64,000 nt of DNA, taken from NCBI RefSeq assembly GCF_003002895.1, contig NZ_PVTI01000009.1, forward strand, positions 1 to 64,000, written 5' to 3'. Made by a program: the position numbers and the translations under genes. Each line of letters begins with the position of its first letter. Within the stretch, counting starts at the first letter, position 1. Positions 13,522 through 25,286 of the stretch are shown in pieces. The notes below the pieces were generated by a model, which was not told the DNA's origin, searched no databases, and worked only from the letters and a program-made list of their open reading frames with translations. Origin of the DNA: Knoellia remsis (GTDB lineage Bacteria; Actinomycetota; Actinomycetes; Actinomycetales; Dermatophilaceae).

Positions 13522-13575
13522 CCTCGCCGCTCCGCCGGTCCCAGCCTGTCCCGCCCCGTTCGATGGGTGAGTTTT

Positions 13576-15483
13576 TCACGGGGTGGGTGGACGCAGCACG
13601 GGCGTCAGGGTCTCGAGGACCGTGGCGTCCTCGATCGTCGACGGCACGTTCGGGGTCTTGCCGTCGGCGATCTCGCGCATCGTCTTGCGCAGGATCTTGC
13701 CCGAGCGGGTCTTGGGCAGGGCGGTGACGACGTCGACCTGACGCAGCGCCGCGACGGCGCCGACCTCGTCGCGCACCCGCTGCACCAGCTCGGCCCTGAT
13801 GCGTTCGCCCTCCTCGCCGGAGCCGTCGATGCCGGACTTGAGGACGACGAACCCGCGCGGCAGCTGGCCCTTGAGCTCGTCGGCGACGCCGATGACCGCG
13901 CACTCCGCGACGGCCTCGTGGCCGGCGAGGGCGGCCTCGATCGAGCCGGTCGAGAGCCGGTGCCCGGCGACGTTGAGCACGTCGTCGGTGCGGCCCATGA
14001 CATAGAGGTAGCCGTCCTCGTCGACGAGCCCGCCGTCCCCGGTGAGGTAGTAGCCGGCATACGTCGACAGGTACTCGCCGACGTAGCGGTCGTCGTCGCC
14101 CCAGAGCGTCGGCAGCGTCCCCGGCGGCAGCGGCAGGCGGATCGCGATGGCACCCTCCTCGCCCGCAGGGAGAGGTGAGCCGGTCTCATCGAGGATCTGC
14201 ACGGCATACCCCGGCACCGGGACCGATGGGGAGCCGGGCTTGATCGGCATCGGCTCCAACCCGCGAAGGCTCGACGCGATCGGCCACCCCGTCTCGGTCT
14301 GCCACCAGTTGTCGACGACGGGGACGCCGAGGCGGTCGGTCGCCCATTGCCAGGTGTCGGGGTCGAGGCGTTCGCCGGCGAGGAAGAGCGTCTCGAGGCT
14401 CGACAGGTCGTAGTCGCGCAGAAGCTCGCCGTCCGGGTCGTCGCGTTTGATCGCGCGGTATGCCGTGGGCGCCGTGAACATGGCCTTCACGCCGTAGTCC
14501 TGGATCACCCGGAAGAACGCGCCGGCGTCGGGGGTGCCGACCGGTTTCCCTTCGTAGAGAACGGAACTCGCGCCGGTGAGCAGTGGCGCGTAGACGATGT
14601 AGGAGTGGCCGACGACCCATCCGACGTCGCTGGCGGTGAACCAGGTGTCGCCCTCGTTGATGCCGTAGATGTTCGGCATCGACCAGCGCAGCGCGACCGC
14701 GTGACCGCCGTTGTCGCGGACGATGCCCTTGGGGCGACCGGTCGTGCCGGAGGTGTAGAGGATGTAGAGCGGGTCGGTCGCCTTGACGGCGACCGGGTCG
14801 GCCGGCTCGGCGTCAGCCATGACCTCGTCCCAGGTCATCTCCTCCCAGTCGGTGTCGCGCACCCCGACTTCGGCGGTCGCCTGCTCGCGCTGCAAAACGA
14901 TGACCGACTCGGGCTTGTGGCTGCTGCGGTCGAGCGCGGCGTCGAGGAGCGGCTTGTACTCGACGACGCGGCTGGGCTCGATGCCTGCCGACGCGGACAC
15001 GACGGCAACCGGCTTGGCGTCCTCGATGCGCGCGGCGAGCTCGGCCGGCGCGAACCCGCCGAAGACGACGGAGTGCACCGCCCCGATCCGCGCGCACGCG
15101 AGCATCGCGACGACGGCCTCGGGGATCATCGGCATGTAGATGACGACGCGGTCGCCCTTCGTCACACCGAGCGAGTCGAGCACCCCGGCGAAGTGCGAGA
15201 CCTCGTCGAGCAGGGCGGCATAGGTGAGGGTCCGGCGGGTGTCGGTGACGGGGCTGTCGTAGTGGATCGCGGGCTGGTCTCCGCGCCCCGCCGCGACGTG
15301 CCGGTCGAGGGCGTTGAAGCAGGTGTTGAGCTCGGCGTCCGGGAACCACCGGTAGAACGGCGGGTTGTCGTCGTCGAGGATGCGCTGCGGGGGAGTGACC
15401 CAGTCGATGTCCTGCGCGGCCTCGCGCCAGAACTCGTCGGGATGCTCGATGCTGCGCCGGTATGCCGCGTCGTAGGCCGTCAT
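13576..15483 (-). CDS. prpE: Propionyl-CoA synthetase (acyl-CoA ligase, ANL superfamily)
   Basis: A 635-residue AMP-forming ligase. The N-domain matches acetyl/propionyl-CoA synthetases (WFPDAELNTCFNALDRH). The P-loop is YTSGTTGRPKG, the adenine motif is DNWWQTETG, and the hinge is YYLTGDGG. The catalytic lysine lies in PKTRSGKILRK near the C-end and is the usual acetylation target. DNGGHAVAL after the P-loop fits PrpE rather than Acs. It activates propionate for the methylcitrate or methylmalonyl route. ATG 15483 is preferred over ATG 15492 because GAGG then lies nine bases upstream. A separate Acs is at 56.2-58.2 kb. Confidence 0.9.
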   Translation of the reverse strand: MTAYDAAYRRSIEHPDEFWREAAQDIDWVTPPQRILDDDNPPFYRWFPDAELNTCFNALDRHVAAGRGDQPAIHYDSPVTDTRRTLTYAALLDEVSHFAGVLDSLGVTKGDRVVIYMPMIPEAVVAMLACARIGAVHSVVFGGFAPAELAARIEDAKPVAVVSASAGIEPSRVVEYKPLLDAALDRSSHKPESVIVLQREQATAEVGVRDTDWEEMTWDEVMADAEPADPVAVKATDPLYILYTSGTTGRPKGIVRDNGGHAVALRWSMPNIYGINEGDTWFTASDVGWVVGHSYIVYAPLLTGASSVLYEGKPVGTPDAGAFFRVIQDYGVKAMFTAPTAYRAIKRDDPDGELLRDYDLSSLETLFLAGERLDPDTWQWATDRLGVPVVDNWWQTETGWPIASSLRGLEPMPIKPGSPSVPVPGYAVQILDETGSPLPAGEEGAIAIRLPLPPGTLPTLWGDDDRYVGEYLSTYAGYYLTGDGGLVDEDGYLYVMGRTDDVLNVAGHRLSTGSIEAALAGHEAVAECAVIGVADELKGQLPRGFVVLKSGIDGSGEEGERIRAELVQRVRDEVGAVAALRQVDVVTALPKTRSGKILRKTMREIADGKTPNVPSTIEDATVLETLTPVLRPPTP

Positions 15484-17013: not shown

Positions 17014-17101
17014 GGAGGATTCGCATAGTGGCCTAGTGCGCACGATTGGAAATCGTGTTGGGATAAAACCCTCGGGGGTTCAAATCCCCCATCCTCCGCC
17101 A
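17014..17101 (+). tRNA. tRNA-Ser(GGA), with encoded CCA
   Basis: The acceptor stem GGAGGAT pairs with ATCCTCC, the anticodon loop TTGGAAA gives GGA, there is a long variable arm, and the T-arm is GGGGG-TTCAAAT-CCCCC. The 3' CCA is at 17099-17101. A TAACCT -10-like box lies at 17000-17005. A hairpin follows eight bases downstream. Confidence 0.95.
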
Positions 17102-17138: not shown

Positions 17139-17290
17139 ACTCATGTTGGCAGGTCGGCGCGGCTGGACGCGGAAGTCGGTTCAGGCCGCGGATATCTCCG
17201 CGTCCGACCCCGGTTTCCGCGTCTGGGACCGCGCTAGACCTCTTGCATCGGCTCGACGCCGTGGCTAAGTTCCAAGGTGCAGCCCTAGTG

Positions 17291-17305
17291 CGTGAATTGT
17301 TCACA
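17291..17305 (+). promoter_or_regulatory. Candidate MurR operator upstream of nagZ
   Basis: CGTGA-ATTGT-TCACA matches the CGTGA-N5-TCACG palindromes of the murR-murQ gap at 14 of 15 symmetric positions and lies 31 bases before the nagZ start. It overlaps a longer palindrome TGTTCAC-N6-GTGAACA (17298-17317). A link to the MurR protein encoded in the cluster is inferred from the shared motif. Confidence 0.55.
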
Positions 17306-17336
17306 TCGTCGTGAACACCGAGGAACCGGAGAAGCC

Positions 17337-19148
17337 ATGACCCCCAGGCCCGTCACCCGCCGCACCGCGATCGCCTCGGCGGTCGCCGTCTCCTTCGCCG
17401 CGGGGGCCGCCCCCCGCTCGGCGTTCGGCACCCCGCTCGCGACCCCGGCCGGTCCGCGCGGCTGGGTCGAGTCGACCATCGCGCGCATGACCTTGGAGGA
17501 GAAGGTCGGTCAGCTCTTCGTCCAGAACGTCTACGGCAAGGACGCGACCACGCCCGACGACCGCAACCTCCCGCTCTATGGCGTCGCGAGCCCGGCCGAG
17601 GTCGTGCAGAAGTACCACCTCGGCGGCATCATCTACTTCGCCTGGACCGACAACGTCGCGAACCCCACCCAGATCGCCGGCCTCTCCAACGGGCTCCAGC
17701 AGGCCGCGCTGAGCCAGCCGTCGAAGGTCAAGGTGCCGCTGCAGGTCGCCGTCGACCAGGAGCAGGGTGTCGTCACCCGGATCGGCCCGCCGGCAACCCA
17801 GTTCCCCGGCTCCATGGCGCTCGGAGCCGGCCGCTCCACCGAGGACGCCCGCACCGCCGCCCGCATCACCGGCGAGGAGCTGCGCGCCATGGGCATCAAC
17901 GTCGACTTCGCGCCCGTTGCCGACGTCAACGTCAACCCGCTCAACCCGGTCATCGGGACGCGCTCCTTCTCGAGCCGTCCGGACCTCGCCGCCAGCATGG
18001 TCGCGGCGCAGGTGCAGGGCTACCAGGACGACGGCAACGTCGCTGCGTCCGCGAAGCACTTCCCCGGCCACGGCGACACCGCCACCGACAGCCACGTCGC
18101 GTTCCCCGTCATCACGCACACCCGCGAGCAGTGGGAGCAGATTGACCGCCCGCCGTTCCAGGCCGCGATCGACAAGGGCATCGACATGATCATGACGGCG
18201 CACCTGTCCTTCCCGGCGCTCGACGACTCCGGCAACCCGGCCACGCTGAGCAAGCCGATCCTCACCGGCCTGCTCCGGGAGGAGCTCGGCTACGAGGGCG
18301 TCATCGTCACCGACGCCCTCAACATGCAGGGGGTGCGCGACCTCTACGGCGACGCCGAGGTTGCCGTGCGCGCCCTCGAGGCCGGCGTCGACCAGCTCCT
18401 CATGACGCCGGCGATGGACGAGGCGTATGCCGCGGTGCTGGGTGCCGTGCGTTCCGGCCGGATCAGCGAGAAGGCCATCAACGACAAGCTGCGTCGCGTC
18501 CTCGCGCTCAAGGTCCGTCGGGGCATCGTCGCCGACCCGACGGTCGACGTCTCCGCCGTCCCGCAGCTCGTCGGTCCGGCCGAGAACCTCGCCATCGCCG
18601 ATGCCGTCTCGAACCGCACGACGACCCTCGTCGTCAACGACGACAAGGTCCTCCCGCTCGCCGCGAGCGGCAAGAATGTCCTCGTCACCGGCTACGGCGT
18701 GACGACGACGCAGACCCTCGCGGCGGGCTTGACCGAGGCCGGCGCCACGACGACGACCAACGTCACCGGCACCTCGCCCACCGACGCTCAGATCGCGGCC
18801 GCGGTCGCGGCGGCGCAGGGCAAGGACGCGATCGTCGTCACGACGATGAAGGCTTGGGACACGGCCGTCACCGACAAGCGCGCCGGTCAGCAGAAGCTCG
18901 TCAAGGCGTTGCAGGACACCGGGATTCCCGTCATCGTCGTCGCCACCCGCGACCCCTACGACATCGCCTACCTGCCCGGCACGCGGACCTACCTCGCGAC
19001 CTACTCCTACAGTCCCGTCGCCATCGAGGCCGTCGCCCGCGTCATCGCCGGGACGGTGTCGCCGACGGCGAAGCTGCCGGTCGACATCCCCGCCGAGGGC
19101 GACCCGTCCACGATCCTCTACCCGTTCGGCCACGGCCTCACCTACTGA
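17337..19148 (+). CDS. nagZ: Secreted beta-N-acetylglucosaminidase, GH3 NagZ-like
   Basis: A 603-residue preprotein with a twin-arginine signal (TRRTAIASAVAVSFAAGAA). It resembles the exported Bacillus NagZ (YbbD): an N-terminal GH3 barrel with KHFPGHGDTATDSH (the NagZ loop with catalytic His/Asp dyad, about residue 237) and nucleophile Asp in VTDALNMQGV (about 325), plus a second alpha/beta domain to the C-end. It trims terminal GlcNAc from peptidoglycan chains. It is the first gene of the wall-recycling cluster and is followed by NamZ, which removes the MurNAc thus exposed. Confidence 0.9.
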   Translation: MTPRPVTRRTAIASAVAVSFAAGAAPRSAFGTPLATPAGPRGWVESTIARMTLEEKVGQLFVQNVYGKDATTPDDRNLPLYGVASPAEVVQKYHLGGIIYFAWTDNVANPTQIAGLSNGLQQAALSQPSKVKVPLQVAVDQEQGVVTRIGPPATQFPGSMALGAGRSTEDARTAARITGEELRAMGINVDFAPVADVNVNPLNPVIGTRSFSSRPDLAASMVAAQVQGYQDDGNVAASAKHFPGHGDTATDSHVAFPVITHTREQWEQIDRPPFQAAIDKGIDMIMTAHLSFPALDDSGNPATLSKPILTGLLREELGYEGVIVTDALNMQGVRDLYGDAEVAVRALEAGVDQLLMTPAMDEAYAAVLGAVRSGRISEKAINDKLRRVLALKVRRGIVADPTVDVSAVPQLVGPAENLAIADAVSNRTTTLVVNDDKVLPLAASGKNVLVTGYGVTTTQTLAAGLTEAGATTTTNVTGTSPTDAQIAAAVAAAQGKDAIVVTTMKAWDTAVTDKRAGQQKLVKALQDTGIPVIVVATRDPYDIAYLPGTRTYLATYSYSPVAIEAVARVIAGTVSPTAKLPVDIPAEGDPSTILYPFGHGLTY

Positions 19149-19156
19149 AACCACAC

Positions 19157-19223
19157 CCCGACTGGTTGCCCGTTCGTGCGTGAAAAGCGCAGCGACGAGT
19201 GCACGAACGGGCAACCAGTCGGG
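19157..19223. repeat. Perfect 23-bp inverted repeat between nagZ and namZ
   Basis: Arms 19157-19179 and 19201-19223 are exact complements beginning CCCGACTGGTTGCCCG. The loop contains AGCGCAGCGACGA, which recurs in the loop of the hairpin at 59601-59665. It could attenuate transcription or shield mRNA ends within the operon. It is also one of a family of similar intergenic hairpins. Confidence 0.9.
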
Positions 19224-19243
19224 AAGAACAAAGGAAGCGCACC

Positions 19244-20584
19244 ATGACTGCACCCAACCGTCGACAGCTCCTCACCGGTGGTGTCGGGGTCGCCGGCGCC
19301 GCCGCCCTCGGACTCGGGGCCTCCCCGGCACACGCGACCACGGCAGGCGCGCGGACGGCATACGCCACCGCCTCGAACGACCCACGACGACCGGTGACGC
19401 CGGGCGCGGACGTCGCAGCGGCCGACAACTGGTCCGTCCTCGCCGGCCGCAAGGTCGGCATCATCACGAACCCGACCGGGATCCTGCGCAACCTCCGCTC
19501 GATCGTCGACGAGATGCACGAGGCCGGAACCGTCCACATCCGGGCGGTCTTCGGGCCCGAGCACGGCTTCCGCGGCACGGCGCAGGCCGGCGAGGCCGAG
19601 GACACCTACGTCGACGAGCGCACCGGCATCACCGTCTACGACGCCTACGGCGCGAACACCGCGAAGTTCGCGTCGATGATCAAGGCGTCCGGCACCGACA
19701 CGGTCGTCTTCGACATCCAGGACGTCGGCGCGCGGTTCTACACCTACATCTGGACGATGTACACAGCGATGAAGGCGTGCGTCGAGACCGGCGCCTCGCT
19801 CGTCGTGCTCGACCGCCCCAACCCCATCGGCGGCATGACCCGCGGCCCGATGATGACCGAGGCCTACACCTCCGGCGTCGGCGCCGAGGCGATCGTCCAG
19901 CAGCACGGCATGACCGTCGGCGAGCTGGCGCGGTTCCTCAATGGCGAGATCCTCGCGAGCGACACCGGCGGCCGGACGCTCGACGAGGTCACCGTCGTCG
20001 AGGTGCGCGGCTGGCGCCGCGACGTGACGTATGCCGGTACCGGCCTTCCGTGGGTCCTCCCCAGCCCGAACATGCCGACGCCGGACACCGCGCTCGTCTA
20101 CCCAGGGACGGGCATGTTCGAGGGCACGAACCTCTCCGAGGGGCGTGGCACGACGCGGCCGTTCGAGCTCATCGGTGCGCCCTACGTCGACTACCGCTGG
20201 GCCGAACGGCTCGCGACGCGCGGCCTTCCTGGCGTGGGGTTCCGCGAGGCCTACTTCACGCCGACGTTCAACAAGCACGTCGGCAAGGTCTGTGGCGGTG
20301 TGCAGGTGCACATCACCGACCGGAACGAGGTCGACGCCATCCGCACCGCCGTCGAGATGCTCGTCGCGCTCAAGGCGCTCTATCCCGAGTTCGACTGGCG
20401 TCGCGACAGCTGGGACGCCGCGCGGCCCTACTGGATCGACAAGCTCACCGGCTCGACGCGACTGCGCGACCAGATCACCGCGGGTGCCGACGCCGACACC
20501 GTCATCGGGGCGTGGCAGGCGGAGCTCGCGGCGTTCGAGGCGCAGCGCAAGCCCTACCTCATCTACGGCGGGCCGGCGCGATGA
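19244..20584 (+). CDS. namZ: Exo-beta-N-acetylmuramidase NamZ (DUF1343)
   Basis: A 446-residue preprotein with an RRQLL twin-arginine signal and cleavage near AHA (about residue 28). The DUF1343 domain shows VGIITNPTGI, FGPEHGFRG near residue 105, DIQDVGARFYTYIWTM, and DRPNPIGG, all diagnostic. NamZ (Bacillus YbbC) removes non-reducing-end MurNAc from wall chains, alternating with NagZ. RBS AAAGGAAG. It overlaps the next gene by four bases (ATGA). Confident family assignment; symbol by analogy with Bacillus. Confidence 0.9.
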   Translation: MTAPNRRQLLTGGVGVAGAAALGLGASPAHATTAGARTAYATASNDPRRPVTPGADVAAADNWSVLAGRKVGIITNPTGILRNLRSIVDEMHEAGTVHIRAVFGPEHGFRGTAQAGEAEDTYVDERTGITVYDAYGANTAKFASMIKASGTDTVVFDIQDVGARFYTYIWTMYTAMKACVETGASLVVLDRPNPIGGMTRGPMMTEAYTSGVGAEAIVQQHGMTVGELARFLNGEILASDTGGRTLDEVTVVEVRGWRRDVTYAGTGLPWVLPSPNMPTPDTALVYPGTGMFEGTNLSEGRGTTRPFELIGAPYVDYRWAERLATRGLPGVGFREAYFTPTFNKHVGKVCGGVQVHITDRNEVDAIRTAVEMLVALKALYPEFDWRRDSWDAARPYWIDKLTGSTRLRDQITAGADADTVIGAWQAELAAFEAQRKPYLIYGGPAR

Positions 20585-22368
20585 CTGCGGGCCCGGTGCC
20601 GCAGCACGTCTCCCGTCAGGTCACGCGTCGCGTCTCGCGTCGCGTCGTCCTCGACGGCGGGATCGCCGCTGGGACAGCGCTTTTCGTGAAGCTGCCGTCG
20701 GCCGTCGCGGAGGACTTCACGAAGCCGTTCACCGGGTTCGCCCCGCCGTCGACGGTCCTGCGTGAGGGCACGCCCGCCTCCGTCGGCCTCGACCCGGCAC
20801 CGATCGAGATCGCGAAGCAGCGCGTGATCGGCTACCAGACGGCGCCCGCTGGGGGGACGCCGCTCTACCCCGGTCACGTCGGGCTCATGGCCCACGACGG
20901 CATGATCGTCACAACCCAGGTCGACGGCTGGGCGCTGCGCTACGCCACCGCGACGACCGAGCTCCCGCGCTCGGAGTGGATCCCGATGCGACGCGACACG
21001 ATCTTCGACCTCGCGTCGGTGTCCAAGCTGTTCACGTCGATCGCCGTCGTCCAGCTCATCGAGGAGGGGCGGGTCGAGCTGGAGGCGACGGTCGCGACCT
21101 ATCTGCCGGAGTTCGCGGCGAACGGCAAGGAGTCGGTGCCGATCCGGCACCTGCTCACGCACACGAGTGGGTTCGTCGCGTGGGTGCCGTTGTGGAGCCG
21201 CTACCCCGACAAGGCATCACGCATCGCGGCCGTGATGAACCAGCCGCTGCTCAACCCGGTCGGCTCGACCTACCTCTACAGCGACCTCAACCTCATCACT
21301 CTCGGCGTCCTCGTCGAGAAGCTGCGGGGCATGCCGCTCGACGAGGTCGTCGCGGAGCACATCACCGGGCCGCTCGGCATGAGCGACACCGGCTACAACC
21401 CGACCCAGCGCGAGCGCACCGCCGCGACCGAGTACCAGGTGACGCCGTCGCGCGGCATGGTCTGGGGCGAGGTCCACGACGAGAACGCCTGGTCCCTCGG
21501 CGGTGTCGCCGGACACGCCGGGGTCTTCTCCACCGTCGACGACCTGGCGATCCTCGGGCAGGCGCTGCTCAACGGCGGCACCTACCGCGGCGGCCGGATC
21601 CTGACGCGCAAGAGCGTGGCGATGCTCATCACGAACTACACGACGGACTTCCCCGGCGACGACCATGGGCTCGGCTTCGAGCTCAACCAGATCTGGTACA
21701 TGGACGCCCTCAGCGGCCCGCGCACCGCCGGCCACACCGGCTACACCGGCACCTCGCTCGTCATCGACTTCCAGTCGCGCTCCATCGCGATCCTCCTGAC
21801 CAACCGCGTCCACCCGTCGCGGTCGTGGGGCAGCATCAACCCCGCCCGCCGCGAGTGGGCCGGCGGGCTCGGTCGGGCGCTTCCGGTGAGCCCGCGTGGC
21901 AGGCACGTCGCCTGGGAGACGCAGGCCAACCATGCGTCGTATGCCGTTCTCTCCGTGCCGCTTTCGGTTCCGTCTGCGGGTGCGCGGCTCGGGTTCGACC
22001 TCGTCGCCGAGACCGAGGAGACCGACCTCCTCAGGGTCGAGGTGACGAGTGGTGACCCGGGCAGTGCGGGGGCGGCGTGGACGTTGTTGCCGTTGGACTA
22101 CCGCTACCCCGGCGAGACCCGTCCCGACGCCGAGGACGGCAGTGTCAGCGGGACGCCCGGGATGCGGAAGTGGGCGCTCGTGCGGGCGTTGCTGCCCGGT
22201 GGGACGACCGGCGTGCGCTGGAGCTACACCACCGACGCCAACACCCTCGGTCGCGGTGTGGCGGTGAGCCGGGTCCGTGCCGTCAGCGACGCCGGCGTCC
22301 TCGTCGACAGCGATGGGAACTCCGGCGCCTTCACGGCTTCGGGCTGGACACTCGTCCGGAGGTCGTAG
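20581..22368 (+). CDS. Beta-lactamase-family serine hydrolase, AmiE-like, with C-terminal extension
   Basis: A 595-residue preprotein with an RR-type signal (SRRVVLDGG). The serine hydrolase core (about 60-430) has SVSK (nucleophile and Lys), YSDLN and HTGYTG in place of the usual KTG. In Bacillus the same position of the cluster holds AmiE (YbbE), which removes stem peptides from MurNAc, so an N-acetylmuramyl-L-alanine amidase role is inferred. About 160 extra C-terminal residues (from LGFDLVAETEE, with VDSDGNSGAFTASGW) look like a beta-sandwich carbohydrate- or wall-binding domain, which AmiE itself lacks as far as I recall. Confidence 0.8.
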   Translation: MTAGPVPQHVSRQVTRRVSRRVVLDGGIAAGTALFVKLPSAVAEDFTKPFTGFAPPSTVLREGTPASVGLDPAPIEIAKQRVIGYQTAPAGGTPLYPGHVGLMAHDGMIVTTQVDGWALRYATATTELPRSEWIPMRRDTIFDLASVSKLFTSIAVVQLIEEGRVELEATVATYLPEFAANGKESVPIRHLLTHTSGFVAWVPLWSRYPDKASRIAAVMNQPLLNPVGSTYLYSDLNLITLGVLVEKLRGMPLDEVVAEHITGPLGMSDTGYNPTQRERTAATEYQVTPSRGMVWGEVHDENAWSLGGVAGHAGVFSTVDDLAILGQALLNGGTYRGGRILTRKSVAMLITNYTTDFPGDDHGLGFELNQIWYMDALSGPRTAGHTGYTGTSLVIDFQSRSIAILLTNRVHPSRSWGSINPARREWAGGLGRALPVSPRGRHVAWETQANHASYAVLSVPLSVPSAGARLGFDLVAETEETDLLRVEVTSGDPGSAGAAWTLLPLDYRYPGETRPDAEDGSVSGTPGMRKWALVRALLPGGTTGVRWSYTTDANTLGRGVAVSRVRAVSDAGVLVDSDGNSGAFTASGWTLVRRS

Positions 22369-22377
22369 TTTTGGGCC

Positions 22378-23292
22378 ATGCCACGCTCGACGCCCCGCGA
22401 CGACAGTCCCGACTCGCGCGACAGCACTGCAGACATGGGTGACGCGCCGCTGCTCGTCCGGCTGCGCGGCATACGGCCCACGCTCACGCCCGCCGAGGAG
22501 CGGGTGGCGACCGAAGTCCTTGCCGACGCCCGACGCGCCTCGGACCTGACGATCACCGAGCTCGCTCGGTCCGCCGAGACGTCGGAGACGACGGTTCTGC
22601 GCTTCTGCAAGCGCCTCGGGCTCAAGGGGTATCCGCAGCTCCGGCTCGCGCTCGCGGCCGAGTCGGCGATGCCGCGTGAACAACGGATGGCCGGCAGTGA
22701 CATCAGCGCCACCGACACGATCGACGACATCGTCGCCAAGGTCGCGGCCGTCGACTCCAGCGCCGTCGAGGAGACCGCGCAACAGCTGGATCGCGACGCG
22801 TTGACCCGCGCGGCCGCGGCGGTCGCGGCGGCGAGCCGGGTCGACATCTACGGCATCGGCGCGAGCGCCCTCGTCGGAAGCGACCTGCAGTCCAAGCTGC
22901 ACCGGATCGGTCTGGTCTCCTTCGCGTGGAACGACCCGCACATCGCCCTCACGAGCGCGACCCTCCTTGGTCGTGGTGACGTCGCGGTCGGCATCTCCCA
23001 CACGGGCGCGACGGCGGAGACGATCGAGTCGCTCGGGGTTGCGCGCGAGCGGGGCGCGACGACCGTGGCGTTGACGAACTTCCCGCTGTCGCCGCTCGCG
23101 AGCTCCGCCGACATCGTCCTCACGACGGCGGCCCGTGAGACGTCGCTGCGCTCGGGCGCCACGGCCAGCCGGATCGCGGCGCTCACCGTCGTCGACTGTC
23201 TCTACATCGCCGTGGCACAACGCGACCTGCGGCGAGCCCGCAAGGCGGTGGCCGACAGCCGCAAGGCGGTCGAAGGCCACCACGTCTCGTGA
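22378..23292 (+). CDS. murR: RpiR-family regulator, probable MurR
   Basis: A 304-residue repressor/activator with an N-terminal RpiR helix-turn-helix (ITELARSAETSETTVLRFCKRLGLKGYPQLRLAL, about residues 58-90) and a C-terminal SIS domain (YGIGASALVGSDL, GISHTGATAETIE). RpiR-SIS proteins sense phosphosugars; MurR senses MurNAc-6-phosphate. Its position just before murQ and within the wall-recycling cluster supports this. Two CGTGA-N5-TCACG palindromes at and after its stop codon are candidate self-regulated operators. Confidence 0.85.
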   Translation: MPRSTPRDDSPDSRDSTADMGDAPLLVRLRGIRPTLTPAEERVATEVLADARRASDLTITELARSAETSETTVLRFCKRLGLKGYPQLRLALAAESAMPREQRMAGSDISATDTIDDIVAKVAAVDSSAVEETAQQLDRDALTRAAAAVAAASRVDIYGIGASALVGSDLQSKLHRIGLVSFAWNDPHIALTSATLLGRGDVAVGISHTGATAETIESLGVARERGATTVALTNFPLSPLASSADIVLTTAARETSLRSGATASRIAALTVVDCLYIAVAQRDLRRARKAVADSRKAVEGHHVS

Positions 23293-23333
23293 GCAAGTCA
23301 CGCTGTCATACGTGCGCGCGTGAGAAAATCACG
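23288..23333 (+). promoter_or_regulatory. Paired CGTGA-N5-TCACG palindromes, candidate MurR operators
   Basis: CGTGAGCAAGTCACG at 23288-23302 and CGTGAGAAAATCACG at 23319-23333 have centres 31 bp apart, about three helical turns, so both face the same side of the helix. The first overlaps the murR stop and the second ends two bases before the murQ ATG. A related site lies before nagZ. Binding by MurR is inferred. Confidence 0.65.
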
Positions 23334-23335
23334 TC

Positions 23336-24265
23336 ATGACGAGTGATGTCTCGAGCGAGATCGCCGGTGAGGTCCGGGTCAGCGCCCCCACCGAGGAGCG
23401 CCACCCGGGGACGAGGGGCATCGACACGGCGTCCTCGCTCGAGATCCTTCGCCTCATGAACGACGCGGATCGCACCGTGCCCGAGGCCATCGCACCGGTC
23501 CTGCCGGAGCTGGCCCGCGTCGTCGACCGCGCGGTCGAGGGGATCAGGGCAGGGGGGAGCGTGCACTACTTCGGCGCCGGCACGTCGGGACGGTTGGCGG
23601 TCCTCGACGCAGCCGAGCTCATGCCGACGTTCAACGCGCCCGAGGGGCTCTTCGTCGCCCACCATGCGGGCGGCGAGCGTGCGCTCGTCCAGGCCGTCGA
23701 GAACGTCGAGGACGACGAGGAGCTGGGGCGTGCCGAGGCATCGGGGCTCACGCGGCACGACGTCGCTATCGGGATCGCCGCGTCGGGGCGGACGCCGTAC
23801 GTGCGAGGTGCGCTCACGGAGGCGCGAGCCCGCGGGGCGGCCACAGCCCTCGTGACGTCGAACCCGCGCGCCGAGATCGCCGACGTCGTCGACCACCTCA
23901 TCGCGCCCGACACCGGGCCCGAGGTCGTCACCGGCTCGACCCGGCTCAAGGCCGGCACGGCGCAGAAGCTCGTCCTCAACGCGTTCTCGACGGCCGTGAT
24001 GATCCGACTCGGCCGGACGTGGTCCAACCTCATGGTCGAGGTCGTCGCGACGAACGCGAAGCTGCGCGGACGCGTCATACGGATCCTCCAGGAGGCCACC
24101 GGCGCGGACGAGGACACGGCGCGGGCTGCCCTGGACGAGGCCGACGGGCAGCTCAAGCCGGCGCTCGTCGCGCTGCTGGCGGGTGTGCCCGTCGACGCGG
24201 CAGCGGCTGCGCTGGCCGGGCACGACGGGTCGGTCGCCGCCGCCCTCGCCGGGCTGCGCGCCTGA
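23336..24265 (+). CDS. murQ: N-acetylmuramic acid 6-phosphate etherase
   Basis: A 309-residue SIS-fold lyase that splits the lactyl ether of MurNAc-6-phosphate into GlcNAc-6-phosphate and D-lactate in the cytoplasm. Signatures include EERHPGTRGID, FGAGTSGRLAVLDAAELMPTF with catalytic Glu, GIAASGRTPYV, and TGSTRLKAGTAQKL followed by MIRLGRTWSNLM. The C-terminal region resembles the usual UBA-like helical tail. No MurNAc PTS (murP) or AmgK-type kinase is encoded in the window, so how MurNAc-6-phosphate arises is open. Confidence 0.95.
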   Translation: MTSDVSSEIAGEVRVSAPTEERHPGTRGIDTASSLEILRLMNDADRTVPEAIAPVLPELARVVDRAVEGIRAGGSVHYFGAGTSGRLAVLDAAELMPTFNAPEGLFVAHHAGGERALVQAVENVEDDEELGRAEASGLTRHDVAIGIAASGRTPYVRGALTEARARGAATALVTSNPRAEIADVVDHLIAPDTGPEVVTGSTRLKAGTAQKLVLNAFSTAVMIRLGRTWSNLMVEVVATNAKLRGRVIRILQEATGADEDTARAALDEADGQLKPALVALLAGVPVDAAAAALAGHDGSVAAALAGLRA

Positions 24266-24344
24266 GCACAAGCCCGACGGCCCTACCGGGGCATGGTGCC
24301 GAGCGGGATTCGGTGGGCATCGAGGCCCCGGGTTAGCATGGAGT

Positions 24345-24434
24345 CCGGCACCCCGTGTGGTGGTACCTCACTGAACTCCCCCAGGGCAGGAATGCAGCAA
24401 GGGCAGGTGAGCTCTTCCAGGTACGCGGGGTGTC
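24345..24434 (+). ncRNA. ffs: Signal recognition particle RNA, small bacterial type (4.5S)
   Basis: The ends pair (GGCACCCCG with CGGGGTGTC) and the apical part reads CCCCCAGGGCAGGAATGCAG then CAAGGGCAG. This is the SRP helix-8 form with GGAA tetraloop and the two asymmetric loops that bind Ffh. It is about 90 nt. A TAGCAT -10 box is at 24334-24339. ffs close to dnaX is the usual actinobacterial arrangement. The ends are approximate. Confidence 0.85.
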
Positions 24435-24457
24435 TTCGTATGCCGGCACGTACCTTT

Positions 24458-24555
24458 CCGACATATTGCGCACAGTTCGCACGCTCGCTGGCGCTCGCGT
24501 GCGACCTGTGCGCAATATGTCGGGGGTGGGGCGAACTGTGCGCAATAAGTCGGGG
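24458..24555. repeat. Long inverted repeat with duplicated right arm after ffs
   Basis: The arm CCGACATATTGCGCACAG (24458-24475) is exactly complementary to 24506-24523. The interior TCGCACGC/GCGTGCGA extends the stem. A second right arm ending GCAATAAGTCGG follows at 24532-24553. It could terminate ffs and, from the other side, the DsbA-like gene. It shares the GCAATAAGTCG end with repeats at 50.7 and 59.6 kb. Confidence 0.8.
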
Positions 24556-24563
24556 ATGCGGGG

Positions 24564-25286
24564 TCAGGCGCCGCAGGCGCAGCCGCCGTCACAGCCTCCG
24601 CAGCCCTCGGTGCGCGCCTCGGGGGCGTTGTGCCGGTCGGCCCAGGTCAGCTCCAGTGCCCGGACGAGCGCGTCCACCGGCTGGGCACCGGTCACCGCGA
24701 ACTTCTGGTCGAGCACGAATGCGGGCACGGCCGTGATCCCGATCTGGTTGGCCGTCGCCTCGTCGGCCCGCACGTCATAGCCGTAGTCCTCCGATCCGAG
24801 CATCTCGCGGACGTCCTTCTCGCCCAGCCCGGCCTCGACGGCGAGCCGGACGAGGGTGTCCCGGTCGCCGAGCGCGGCGCCCTCGGAGTACCACCCGCGC
24901 ATGAGCCGCTCCATGACCGGCTTCTCGAGGCCGCGGGCGCGGGCGAGGTGGATGACCCGGTGCGCGTCGAAGGAGTTGCCGCCGACGGCCTTGTCCCACT
25001 GGAAGTCCAGCCCGACCTCGGCGGCGTCGCGCGCCATCTGCTCGTGCTGCGCCACCATCTCCTCGCGCGAGCGGCCGTACTTCGCTGCGACACGGTCGAC
25101 GTTCGAGCCCTCGATGACCGCGGGGGCGTTCCGGTCGAGCTGGTAGCTGTGCCAGATGACGTCGACCTCGCGCGGCTCCTCACCCTCCGGCGTCGCGGCA
25201 GCGAACTCCTCCAGCGCCAGCTCAAGGCGTCGCTTGCCGACGTGACAGAAGGGGCAGACCAGGTCGAACCAGACATCGATGCGCAC
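24564..25286 (-). CDS. DsbA-family oxidoreductase, FrnE-like
   Basis: A 240-residue protein from GTG 25286, without a signal peptide. The thioredoxin-fold active site CPFCHVGKRR is at residue 11 and the cis-proline region is TAVPAFVLDQKFAVTGAQ (about 185-202). These are typical of cytoplasmic FrnE proteins (2-hydroxychromene isomerase/DsbA fold), which act as disulfide or polyketide oxidoreductases under stress. The last 14 residues are Cys/Gly-rich (CGGCDGGCACGA), a tail common in actinobacterial members and possibly metal-binding. Confidence 0.9.
   Translation of the reverse strand: MRIDVWFDLVCPFCHVGKRRLELALEEFAAATPEGEEPREVDVIWHSYQLDRNAPAVIEGSNVDRVAAKYGRSREEMVAQHEQMARDAAEVGLDFQWDKAVGGNSFDAHRVIHLARARGLEKPVMERLMRGWYSEGAALGDRDTLVRLAVEAGLGEKDVREMLGSEDYGYDVRADEATANQIGITAVPAFVLDQKFAVTGAQPVDALVRALELTWADRHNAPEARTEGCGGCDGGCACGA

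What the first reader, a model, noticed from the sequence alone, without database searches (positions are those of the whole stretch)
17291..23333. Three matching palindromes CGTGA-N5-TCACR define a candidate MurR regulon in the wall-recycling cluster
Sites at 17291 (before nagZ), 23288 (over the murR stop) and 23319 (two bases before murQ) share CGTGA-N5-TCAC. The last two have centres 31 bp apart, about three helical turns. An RpiR-SIS regulator is encoded between them. I do not know of this operator being described for an actinobacterial MurR.
Basis: partly seen in the sequence, partly recalled or inferred. Interest (0 to 1): 0.75.

Follow-up and report, generated by a model that had tools for sequence, protein, structure and literature searches.

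The report
Paired MurR operators controlling wall recycling
In a soil actinobacterium and its relatives, the genes that recycle cell-wall sugars carry paired, precisely spaced DNA sites that a neighbouring repressor probably binds to switch them off, much as in E. coli but with a different DNA code.

Summary
The three palindromes are at the stated coordinates. Both promoters of the cluster thus carry a pair of 13-bp sites (about GTNA-N5-TNAC) with the same 31-bp spacing. The pairs are conserved before murQ and nagZ in the family (Knoellia, Terrabacter, Phycicoccus and others) and in Kribbella, and before nagZ in many Pseudonocardiales, at 31 or 32 bp. A profile built only from murQ sites finds the pair at 38 of 43 nagZ promoters. 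In this genome the 44-bp model returns two hits, both here. In relatives one site of each pair covers the -10 box: the second site at murQ, the first at nagZ. E. coli MurR is reported to bridge two adjacent sites with nearly the same geometry but a different sequence. Best reading: a MurR-like RpiR-SIS tetramer represses nagZ-namZ-hydrolase-murR and murQ until MurNAc-6-phosphate accumulates. Binding, repression and effector are inferred. In the window the murQ -35 and -10 hexamers are degenerate although both operators are intact.

The parts
17243..17248 (+). -35-like hexamer of nagZ promoter (TTGCAT), 17 bp before the -10
   Evidence: A TTG hexamer 17 or 18 bp upstream of the -10 in 36 of 37 nagZ-type rows; the generic promoter scan finds none here
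17261..17273 (.).
   Evidence: 31 bp centre-to-centre from N2; murQ-trained profile finds this kind of pair at 38 of 43 nagZ upstreams; 44-bp model E 7.9e-5
17266..17271 (+). -10 box of nagZ promoter (TAAGTT) inside operator N1
   Evidence: TAAGTT in 34 of 37 rows, TAACTT in 2
17292..17304 (.).
17337..19148 (+). nagZ-like GH3 beta-N-acetylhexosaminidase
   Evidence: Pfam PF00933 E 1.6e-92; NCBIfam PRK05337 173.1 bits, below its cut-off of 207
19199..20584 (+). namZ, exo-beta-N-acetylmuramidase (start codon not settled)
   Evidence: Pfam NamZ_N E 4.9e-75, NamZ_C E 2e-57
20563..22368 (+). serine hydrolase / PBP4B-like beta-lactamase-fold protein (open frame; the start lies inside)
   Evidence: Pfam PF00144 E 6.2e-64; NCBIfam PBP4B is the best model but below its cut-off
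22378..23292 (+). murR-like RpiR-SIS regulator
   Evidence: Pfam HTH_6 and SIS; closest solved full-length relatives 4ivn, 8ju9, 8k3b; E. coli MurR SIS domain 7en5/7en6
23289..23301 (.). Operator Q1 (GTGAGCAAGTCAC), overlaps the murR stop codon
23306..23311 (+). Position of the murQ -35 (TTGACG in 31 of 39 rows); here TCATAC, degenerate
23320..23332 (.). Operator Q2 (GTGAGAAAATCAC)
23329..23334 (+). Position of the murQ -10 (TAACCT or TAACAT in 34 of 39 rows); here TCACGT, degenerate
23336..24265 (+). [quoted passage not shown]
   Evidence: NCBIfam PRK05441 369.8 bits (cut-off 168); TIGR00274 301.4 (cut-off 302)

Best explanation
The palindromes are operators of the MurR-like regulator encoded between them. 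A MurR tetramer (dimer of dimers) binds two 13-bp pseudo-palindromes whose centres are three helical turns apart (31 bp, 32 in some relatives). One pair sits on the nagZ-namZ-hydrolase-murR promoter and one on the murQ promoter. In relatives one site of each pair covers the -10 box: the second site at murQ, the first at nagZ. Bound MurR therefore blocks RNA polymerase. When wall turnover raises MurNAc-6-phosphate, the SIS domain binds it, MurR lets go, and the hydrolases, the etherase and MurR itself are made (autoregulated through the nagZ operon). Shown by sequence: the sites, their pairing, spacing, conservation, position on promoter-like hexamers and co-occurrence with MurR. Inferred: binding, tetramer bridging, repression, effector, operon structure.
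For: (1) Pair at exactly 31 bp before murQ by strict letter count in 36 of 44 murQ upstreams of family genomes (mean of the other distances 14-60: 0.85), 0 of 18 for distant (~50% identity) MurQ. (2) A profile trained only on murQ pairs finds the pair at 38 of 43 nagZ upstreams; median score 23.0 at 31 bp, next best distance 5.4. (3) Of 81 rows of the 44-bp model search in 186 family genomes, 75 lie before murQ (37) or nagZ (38), one at the cluster head of G141 and five elsewhere (E 0.09-0.29); this genome has two, both here. (4) 40 of 45 genomes with MurR at 61% identity or more have a hit, against 3 of 141 others. (5) nagZ copies away from a close MurR (G070, G094, G096, extra copies in G005, G007, G141) have no pair: 0 of 6. 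(6) Outside the family, with the family-trained profile: Kribbella murQ 13 of 15 at 31 bp; Kribbella nagZ best at 31 or 32 bp with score 15 or more in 11 of 15; Pseudonocardiales nagZ likewise in 18 of 27. All four complete clusters among 20 fetched class-wide MurR loci have a pair before nagZ. (7) Where nagZ is missing from the cluster (G141) the pair stays before namZ. (8) E. coli MurR is reported to bridge two sites 17 bp apart, 47 bp in total, over -35/-10 (PMC12713135, passages); K-12 has ATGATTCC twice, 32 bp apart, before murQ.
Against: No binding or expression data. G009 (MurR 64%) and G077 (61%) have no pair before nagZ. murQ of G025 and G178 lacks it. Pseudonocardiales have no pair directly before murQ (0 of 28), Micromonospora none (0 of 3 at murQ and at murR), and 14 of the 20 class-wide MurR loci, three distant ones of family f26 among them, show nothing with this profile. 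A score of 15 alone is not specific: in the family some other distance reaches it in 26 of 32 murQ and 16 of 28 nagZ regions, because one strong site suffices; the telling fact is that 31 is the best distance in 31 of 32 and 28 of 28. In the window the murQ -35 and -10 are degenerate, so what Q1/Q2 repress here is unclear. The protein misses the curated cut-off of the E. coli MurR model (124.6 of 408 bits). Co-occurrence counts are inflated by shared descent.
Confidence: 0.84

Rival explanations
1. The paired sites are bound by a different conserved regulator, and the MurR-like protein is a bystander.
For: No binding data; G077 and G009 have a MurR at 61-64% identity without the nagZ pair.
Against: Presence follows close MurR (40 of 45 against 3 of 141); six nagZ copies without a close MurR lack it; E. 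coli MurR uses nearly the same two-site geometry; in the family the hits are nearly confined to the cluster that encodes MurR (75 of 81 rows before murQ or nagZ).
Confidence: 0.07
2. The conservation reflects promoters (and spacing of promoter parts), not an operator.
For: -10 and -35 hexamers are part of the conserved block.
Against: Q1 lies upstream of the -35 and N2 downstream of the -10, outside the core promoter, yet both are palindromes of the same kind; the promoter is shifted relative to the pair at the two genes; in the window the murQ hexamers are degenerate while the palindromes are perfect.
Confidence: 0.03
3. These are CRP/FNR-family (GlxR-like) sites, since GTGA and TCAC are CRP half-sites (motif recalled, from no call).
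For: Half-sites look alike.
Against: The spacer is 5, not the 6 of the recalled CRP consensus; the family consensus drifts to GTTA/TAAC and GTGG/TTCC; the paired element is nearly confined to one cluster, unlike a global regulator.
Confidence: 0.02
4. MurR binds the pairs but responds to another sugar phosphate or acts as an activator, as S. pneumoniae NanR does.
For: SpNanR is an RpiR activator whose effector stabilises the tetramer without changing DNA affinity (PMC12713135, passages).
Against: In relatives sites lie over the -10 boxes, which favours repression; the target genes belong to MurNAc release and use; E. [quoted passage not shown]
Confidence: 0.13

Closest known systems
E. coli MurR and its murQ operator (Jaeger and Mayer 2008; Zhang et al. 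2022; neither paper held, known here through passages of PMC12713135 and PMC5061867)
   Same: RpiR-SIS regulator next to murQ; two adjacent sites overlapping the promoter, 17 bp apart and 47 bp in total (centre distance about 32; here 31); a PBP4B-like gene in the neighbourhood (yfeW in K-12)
   Different: Operator sequence differs: no match to the actinobacterial profile in the 163-bp K-12 murR-murQ gap; here a second pair stands before nagZ-namZ, murR lies inside that gene series rather than divergent, and none of the five cluster genes matched a PTS transporter
S. pneumoniae NanR and V. vulnificus NanR (RpiR family)
   Same: HTH plus SIS, phosphosugar effector, dimer-tetramer; [quoted passage not shown]
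   Different: Sialic acid genes; different operator; SpNanR is an activator with an 18-bp site
B. subtilis and S. coelicolor murQ clusters (PMC5061867, passages)
   Same: murR-like and murQ genes clustered, with nagZ in B. subtilis
   Different: No MurR operator is described in the passages seen; neither genome was examined here

Membership tests
MurR (regulator of MurNAc-6P etherase genes) | N-terminal RpiR HTH and C-terminal SIS domain | tested here: met
   HTH_6 60.3 bits, SIS 79.9 bits, both above cut-off
MurR (regulator of MurNAc-6P etherase genes) | Curated NCBIfam model for MurR (PRK15482) | tested here: not met
   124.6 bits against 408; best general MurR/RpiR model 213.4 against 378. 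The protein is therefore called MurR-like.
MurR (regulator of MurNAc-6P etherase genes) | Gene linked to murQ | tested here: met
   murR directly before murQ in the window; a MurR match within 3 kb of murQ in all 80 named loci, divergent in L169
MurR (regulator of MurNAc-6P etherase genes) | Two adjacent operator sites about 32 bp apart over the murQ promoter | tested here: met
   As sequence: pair at 31 bp in 36 of 44 family murQ upstreams, in the window with degenerate promoter hexamers; E. coli repeat at 32 bp
MurR (regulator of MurNAc-6P etherase genes) | Binds the operator; released by MurNAc-6P; tetrameric | not testable with these tools
   No binding or oligomer assay available
CRP/FNR-type operator | Half-sites TGTGA/TCACA with 6-bp spacer (recalled) | tested here: not met
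   The three sites, and the aligned relatives, have a 5-bp spacer
sigma70-type promoters within the element | TTGNNN 17-18 bp from a TA-type -10, conserved | tested here: inconclusive
   Met in relatives and at nagZ in the window; murQ hexamers in the window are degenerate; the generic scan finds no promoter in 17150-24700

The most novel reading that the evidence does not exclude
The two-site, 31-32 bp geometry is an old and constrained property of MurR-type tetramers, kept from Gammaproteobacteria to Actinobacteria while the base sequence changed completely. In this species the murQ promoter hexamers have been given up for a perfect double palindrome (TAAC to TCAC improves the palindrome and breaks the -10). 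Q1/Q2 would then act as a roadblock to read-through from the nagZ operon, or as an anchor for a MurR tetramer that loops between nagZ and murQ, rather than as a classical promoter operator.
Probability: 0.2. Interest if true: 0.62.

Novelty: new member of a known kind. Interest (0 to 1): 0.46.

Why it matters
How actinobacteria control recycling of their own wall is little described: in the rows shown by nine full-text searches I saw no actinobacterial MurR operator. The result gives an exact 44-bp element, a two-promoter candidate regulon (nagZ-namZ-hydrolase-murR and murQ) and a spacing rule that can be tested in one gel-shift series. It also provides a search model for annotating MurR regulons in Knoellia, Terrabacter, Kribbella and Pseudonocardiales, and suggests that the two-site geometry of MurR is older than its DNA sequence preference.

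Tried and rejected
Regulon beyond the cluster: the other nine CGTGA-N5-TCACR places of the genome score lower with the family profile (2.7-12.8, against 14.3-18.1 for the mur sites). An open-frame test in the same call did not discriminate, since long open frames also cover the mur sites. The single site at 13567 (17.8) has no partner at 31 bp. In the family-wide model search the hits away from murQ, nagZ or the cluster head were five, at E 0.09-0.29: G088, G156 contig 2, G004 contig 15, G093 and G014; taken as chance.

Class-wide search with the nagZ-type model (394 genomes) gave 16 genomes at E up to 0.05: four of the family, twelve others. I looked at ten of the twelve (L250 and L253 not opened). 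L244 and L245 have the pair before nagZ. L246 has a TTGACC-17-TAAGTT promoter with the first site, before a gene whose end looks nagZ-like, but no clear second site. L247 and L254 were first read at the wrong place (contig ends) and, reread, look like chance, as do the others; L249 and L251 share one near-identical stretch. L248 has a TTGACT-TAAGTT-like stretch that I could not place.

Window murQ promoter: the generic scan (at least 4 of 6 letters per hexamer and 9 of 12 in all) finds none; by eye I saw only weak candidates. A tree of murR+murQ does not place the window beside K. sinensis (G004), the other species with a TCAC -10, so the change may be independent; support there is 0.70-0.94 and I do not lean on it. 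A Fisher test was computed, but its p-value is not used because the genomes are related.

Counts and what was left out. murQ: 97 of 186 family genomes matched, many only by weak SIS matches; I read upstreams of all 44 at 64% identity or more and of 18 lower ones. nagZ: 179 of 186 matched, mostly distant GH3 proteins; I read 43 upstreams, then G077 and the second copies of G007 and G005; G177 and G083 were judged only by their model hits. Model R1 holds 39 of 44 murQ rows (one duplicate and four low-scoring rows left out), R2 37 of 43 nagZ rows (one duplicate and five without a pair left out), R3 61 rows. The models and the profile used from then on contain the window's own sites, so their scores on the window are not independent; the murQ-to-nagZ transfer is independent between the two genes, and Kribbella, Nakamurella and Pseudonocardiales are outside the training set. 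One search contained an error for one locus (L182, nagZ start cut off, region wrongly taken); one search repeats it without L182, which lowers Pseudonocardiales nagZ at 31 bp from 14 of 28 to 13 of 27. Class-wide MurR: 93 of 394 genomes matched; I fetched 20 loci outside the family, two of which (G213, G381) I already knew as model hits.
Full report
WHAT IS THERE. The window is from an unnamed relative of Knoellia: its genus mates in the genome set include contigs whose lengths match those of Janibacter sp. HTCC2649, Knoellia aerolata, K. flava, K. locipacati, K. sinensis and K. subterranea. The cluster runs nagZ (17337-19148), namZ (19199-20584), a serine hydrolase of the PBP4B/beta-lactamase fold (open frame 20563-22368), a MurR-like RpiR-SIS regulator (22378-23292) and murQ (23336-24265), all on the + strand. 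The long ORF listed at 19180-22368 is a mixture: its first half is an unused frame over namZ.

THE OBSERVATION. The three palindromes are exactly where stated and exceed chance in the window. The consensus alone is not specific: there are 12 places in the genome, and GTGA-N5-TCAC with one mismatch shows no excess in the window. The three mur sites have the three best family-profile scores of the 12 (they are among the profile's training rows).

Upstream of nagZ a second, weaker site (GTGGCTAAGTTCC, 17261-17273) lies exactly 31 bp before the palindrome at 17292-17304. Both promoters of the cluster thus carry a pair with the same centre distance. In 60 simulated windows of the same first-order composition the best 31-bp pair scored at most 15.6; the nagZ pair scores 30.0, and the two murQ sites sum to 29.6.

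CONSERVATION. I read the DNA before murQ in 44 family genomes with MurQ of at least 64% identity. By a strict six-letter count, 36 of 44 have a pair at exactly 31 bp; the other distances from 14 to 60 average 0.85 genomes. With the -35 position as part of the score, 40 of 44 reach 12 or more, the window without any -35 points; the weakest of them, G009, has a poor second site. Exceptions: G025 and G178 have none, G085 has the pair at 32 bp, and G092 has a pair without the usual -35. Before nagZ, a profile trained only on murQ sites finds the pair at 38 of 43 (positives score 16.4 or more, the five failures 3.6 or less): the failures are G009, G094, G096, G070 and the out-of-cluster copy of G141. 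G077 and second copies in G005 and G007 also lack it. Of these eight, six are copies without a close MurR beside them; G009 and G077 do have a MurR at 64% and 61%, and they count against the model.

OTHER ORDERS. Named genomes (the best 80 of 572 loci) show the same gene order in Kribbella and in most Pseudonocardiales loci, in some with other genes between. With a profile trained on the family only, Kribbella murQ reaches 15 or more at 31 bp in 13 of 15. Kribbella nagZ has its best pair at 31 bp in 2 and at 32 bp in 9 of 15. The other four (L149, L155, L156, L162) have two nagZ copies in tandem; in L156 and L162 a 31-bp pair stands before the first copy, in L149 the first copy is cut, and L155 showed none at 31 bp. 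Pseudonocardiales nagZ has its best pair at 31 or 32 bp with a score of 15 or more in 18 of 27 (31 best in 13, 32 best in 10, whatever the score); their scores are lower than in the family, and other distances reach similar values, so this is weaker evidence. Nakamurella murQ has the pair (1 of 1); Micromonospora 0 of 3 and Leucobacter 0 of 1 at murQ. From the class-wide MurR search (93 of 394 genomes matched) I fetched 20 loci outside the family. All four with the complete nagZ-namZ-hydrolase-murR series have a pair before nagZ (31, 31, 31 and 32 bp; scores 20.8, 18.9, 29.7, 22.9); two of these genomes I already knew as model hits. A fifth with nagZ and namZ is cut by its contig. Of the other 15, one (L301) has a pair before murR and 14 show nothing with this profile, including three with a distant (45-46%) nagZ match and three distant MurR loci of family f26.

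REGULON. The 44-bp model over 186 family genomes hits 43 genomes at E up to 0.5. Of its 81 rows (three are second-strand rows of the same place), 37 lie before murQ, 38 before nagZ, one at the cluster head of G141 and five elsewhere; all rows with E below 0.08 are at murQ or nagZ. In this genome it hits only the two elements described here (E 7.9e-5 and 0.079). 40 of 45 genomes with MurR at 61% identity or more have a hit, against 3 of 141 others. In Knoellia koreensis (G141/L140) nagZ is not found in the cluster and the pair stands before namZ. In the family no pair precedes murR itself (0 of 32), so murR should be controlled through the nagZ promoter.

GEOMETRY AND MECHANISM. At murQ, TTGACG (31 of 39 rows) lies between the sites and TAACCT or TAACAT (34 of 39) 17 bp further on, overlapping the second site; in most family genomes the start codon follows closely, as in a leaderless transcript. 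At nagZ a TTG hexamer lies upstream and TAAGTT (34 of 37) lies inside the first site, with the second site downstream of the -10. The promoter is thus shifted relative to the pair at the two genes, but a site covers the -10 at both. One tetramer holding two sites on the same face of the helix, three turns apart, and blocking polymerase is the natural reading. E. coli MurR is reported as a tetramer proposed to bridge two sites 17 bp apart over -35 and -10, 47 bp in total (PMC12713135, passages), and K-12 DNA shows ATGATTCC twice, 32 bp apart, before murQ. No actinobacterial-type site is seen in that 163-bp gap. So the geometry is shared and the sequence is not. That MurNAc-6P is the inducer is taken from E. 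coli (PMC5061867, passages) and is an inference here.

A PUZZLE IN THE WINDOW. In this species the murQ -35 and -10 positions read TCATAC and TCACGT, while both palindromes are perfect. The change from TAAC to TCAC improves the palindrome and breaks the -10; K. sinensis (G004) has TCACCA. The consensus scan finds no terminator-like site between murR and murQ, so murQ may be read through from nagZ, with Q1/Q2 as a roadblock, or a different promoter may serve. This is unresolved.

MEMBERSHIP. The regulator has the domain order, the murQ linkage and the two-site operator arrangement of MurR, but misses the curated model of the E. coli protein by a wide margin. I therefore call it MurR-like and say that it works like MurR.

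LITERATURE. In the rows shown by nine full-text searches (several had more hits than were listed) I saw no actinobacterial MurR operator. Passages were read in PMC12713135, PMC5061867 and PMC12680351 only; the others were seen as listings. Both E. coli MurR papers were not held, and regulon databases were not searched. The novelty claim is limited to that.

Noticed in passing
window 23306-23334: murQ -35/-10 hexamers conserved in relatives are degenerate in this species although both operators are intact; K. sinensis (L018) shows a similar -10 change.
   Followed up: partly
window 13567-13579: A single high-scoring palindrome GTGAGTTTTTCAC (profile 17.8) at the 3' end of the acetate/propionate-CoA ligase gene, without a partner at 31 bp.
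   Followed up: partly
L106, L108, L109, L114, L115, L107 upstream of murR: In the ~50% identity MurR/MurQ subfamily of the same family a diverged element (by eye about GTNAATNATTTTC) stands before murR; the 31-bp pair reaches a profile score of 15 in only 2 of 11 upstreams read (L109, L114).
   Followed up: partly
L167, L170, L175, L178 and other Saccharopolyspora loci, about 8384: murR has its own promoter-like stretch with a GTAAGTTTCCCAC site in these Pseudonocardiales, unlike the family of the window.
   Followed up: partly
L156, L162, L155, L149 (Kribbella): Two nagZ copies in tandem at the head of the cluster, with the operator pair before the first in L156 and L162.
   Followed up: partly
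L303 (G381): A complete nagZ-namZ-hydrolase-murR series with the nagZ operator pair but no murQ match in the 9-kb stretch fetched.
   Followed up: no
window 24458-24560: Inverted and direct repeats around GCGCACAGTTCGC and GCGCAATATGTCGG just after the small SRP RNA (24344-24440), REP-like by eye.
   Followed up: no
window 17014-17101: tRNA-Ser (GGA) directly upstream of the nagZ promoter.
   Followed up: no
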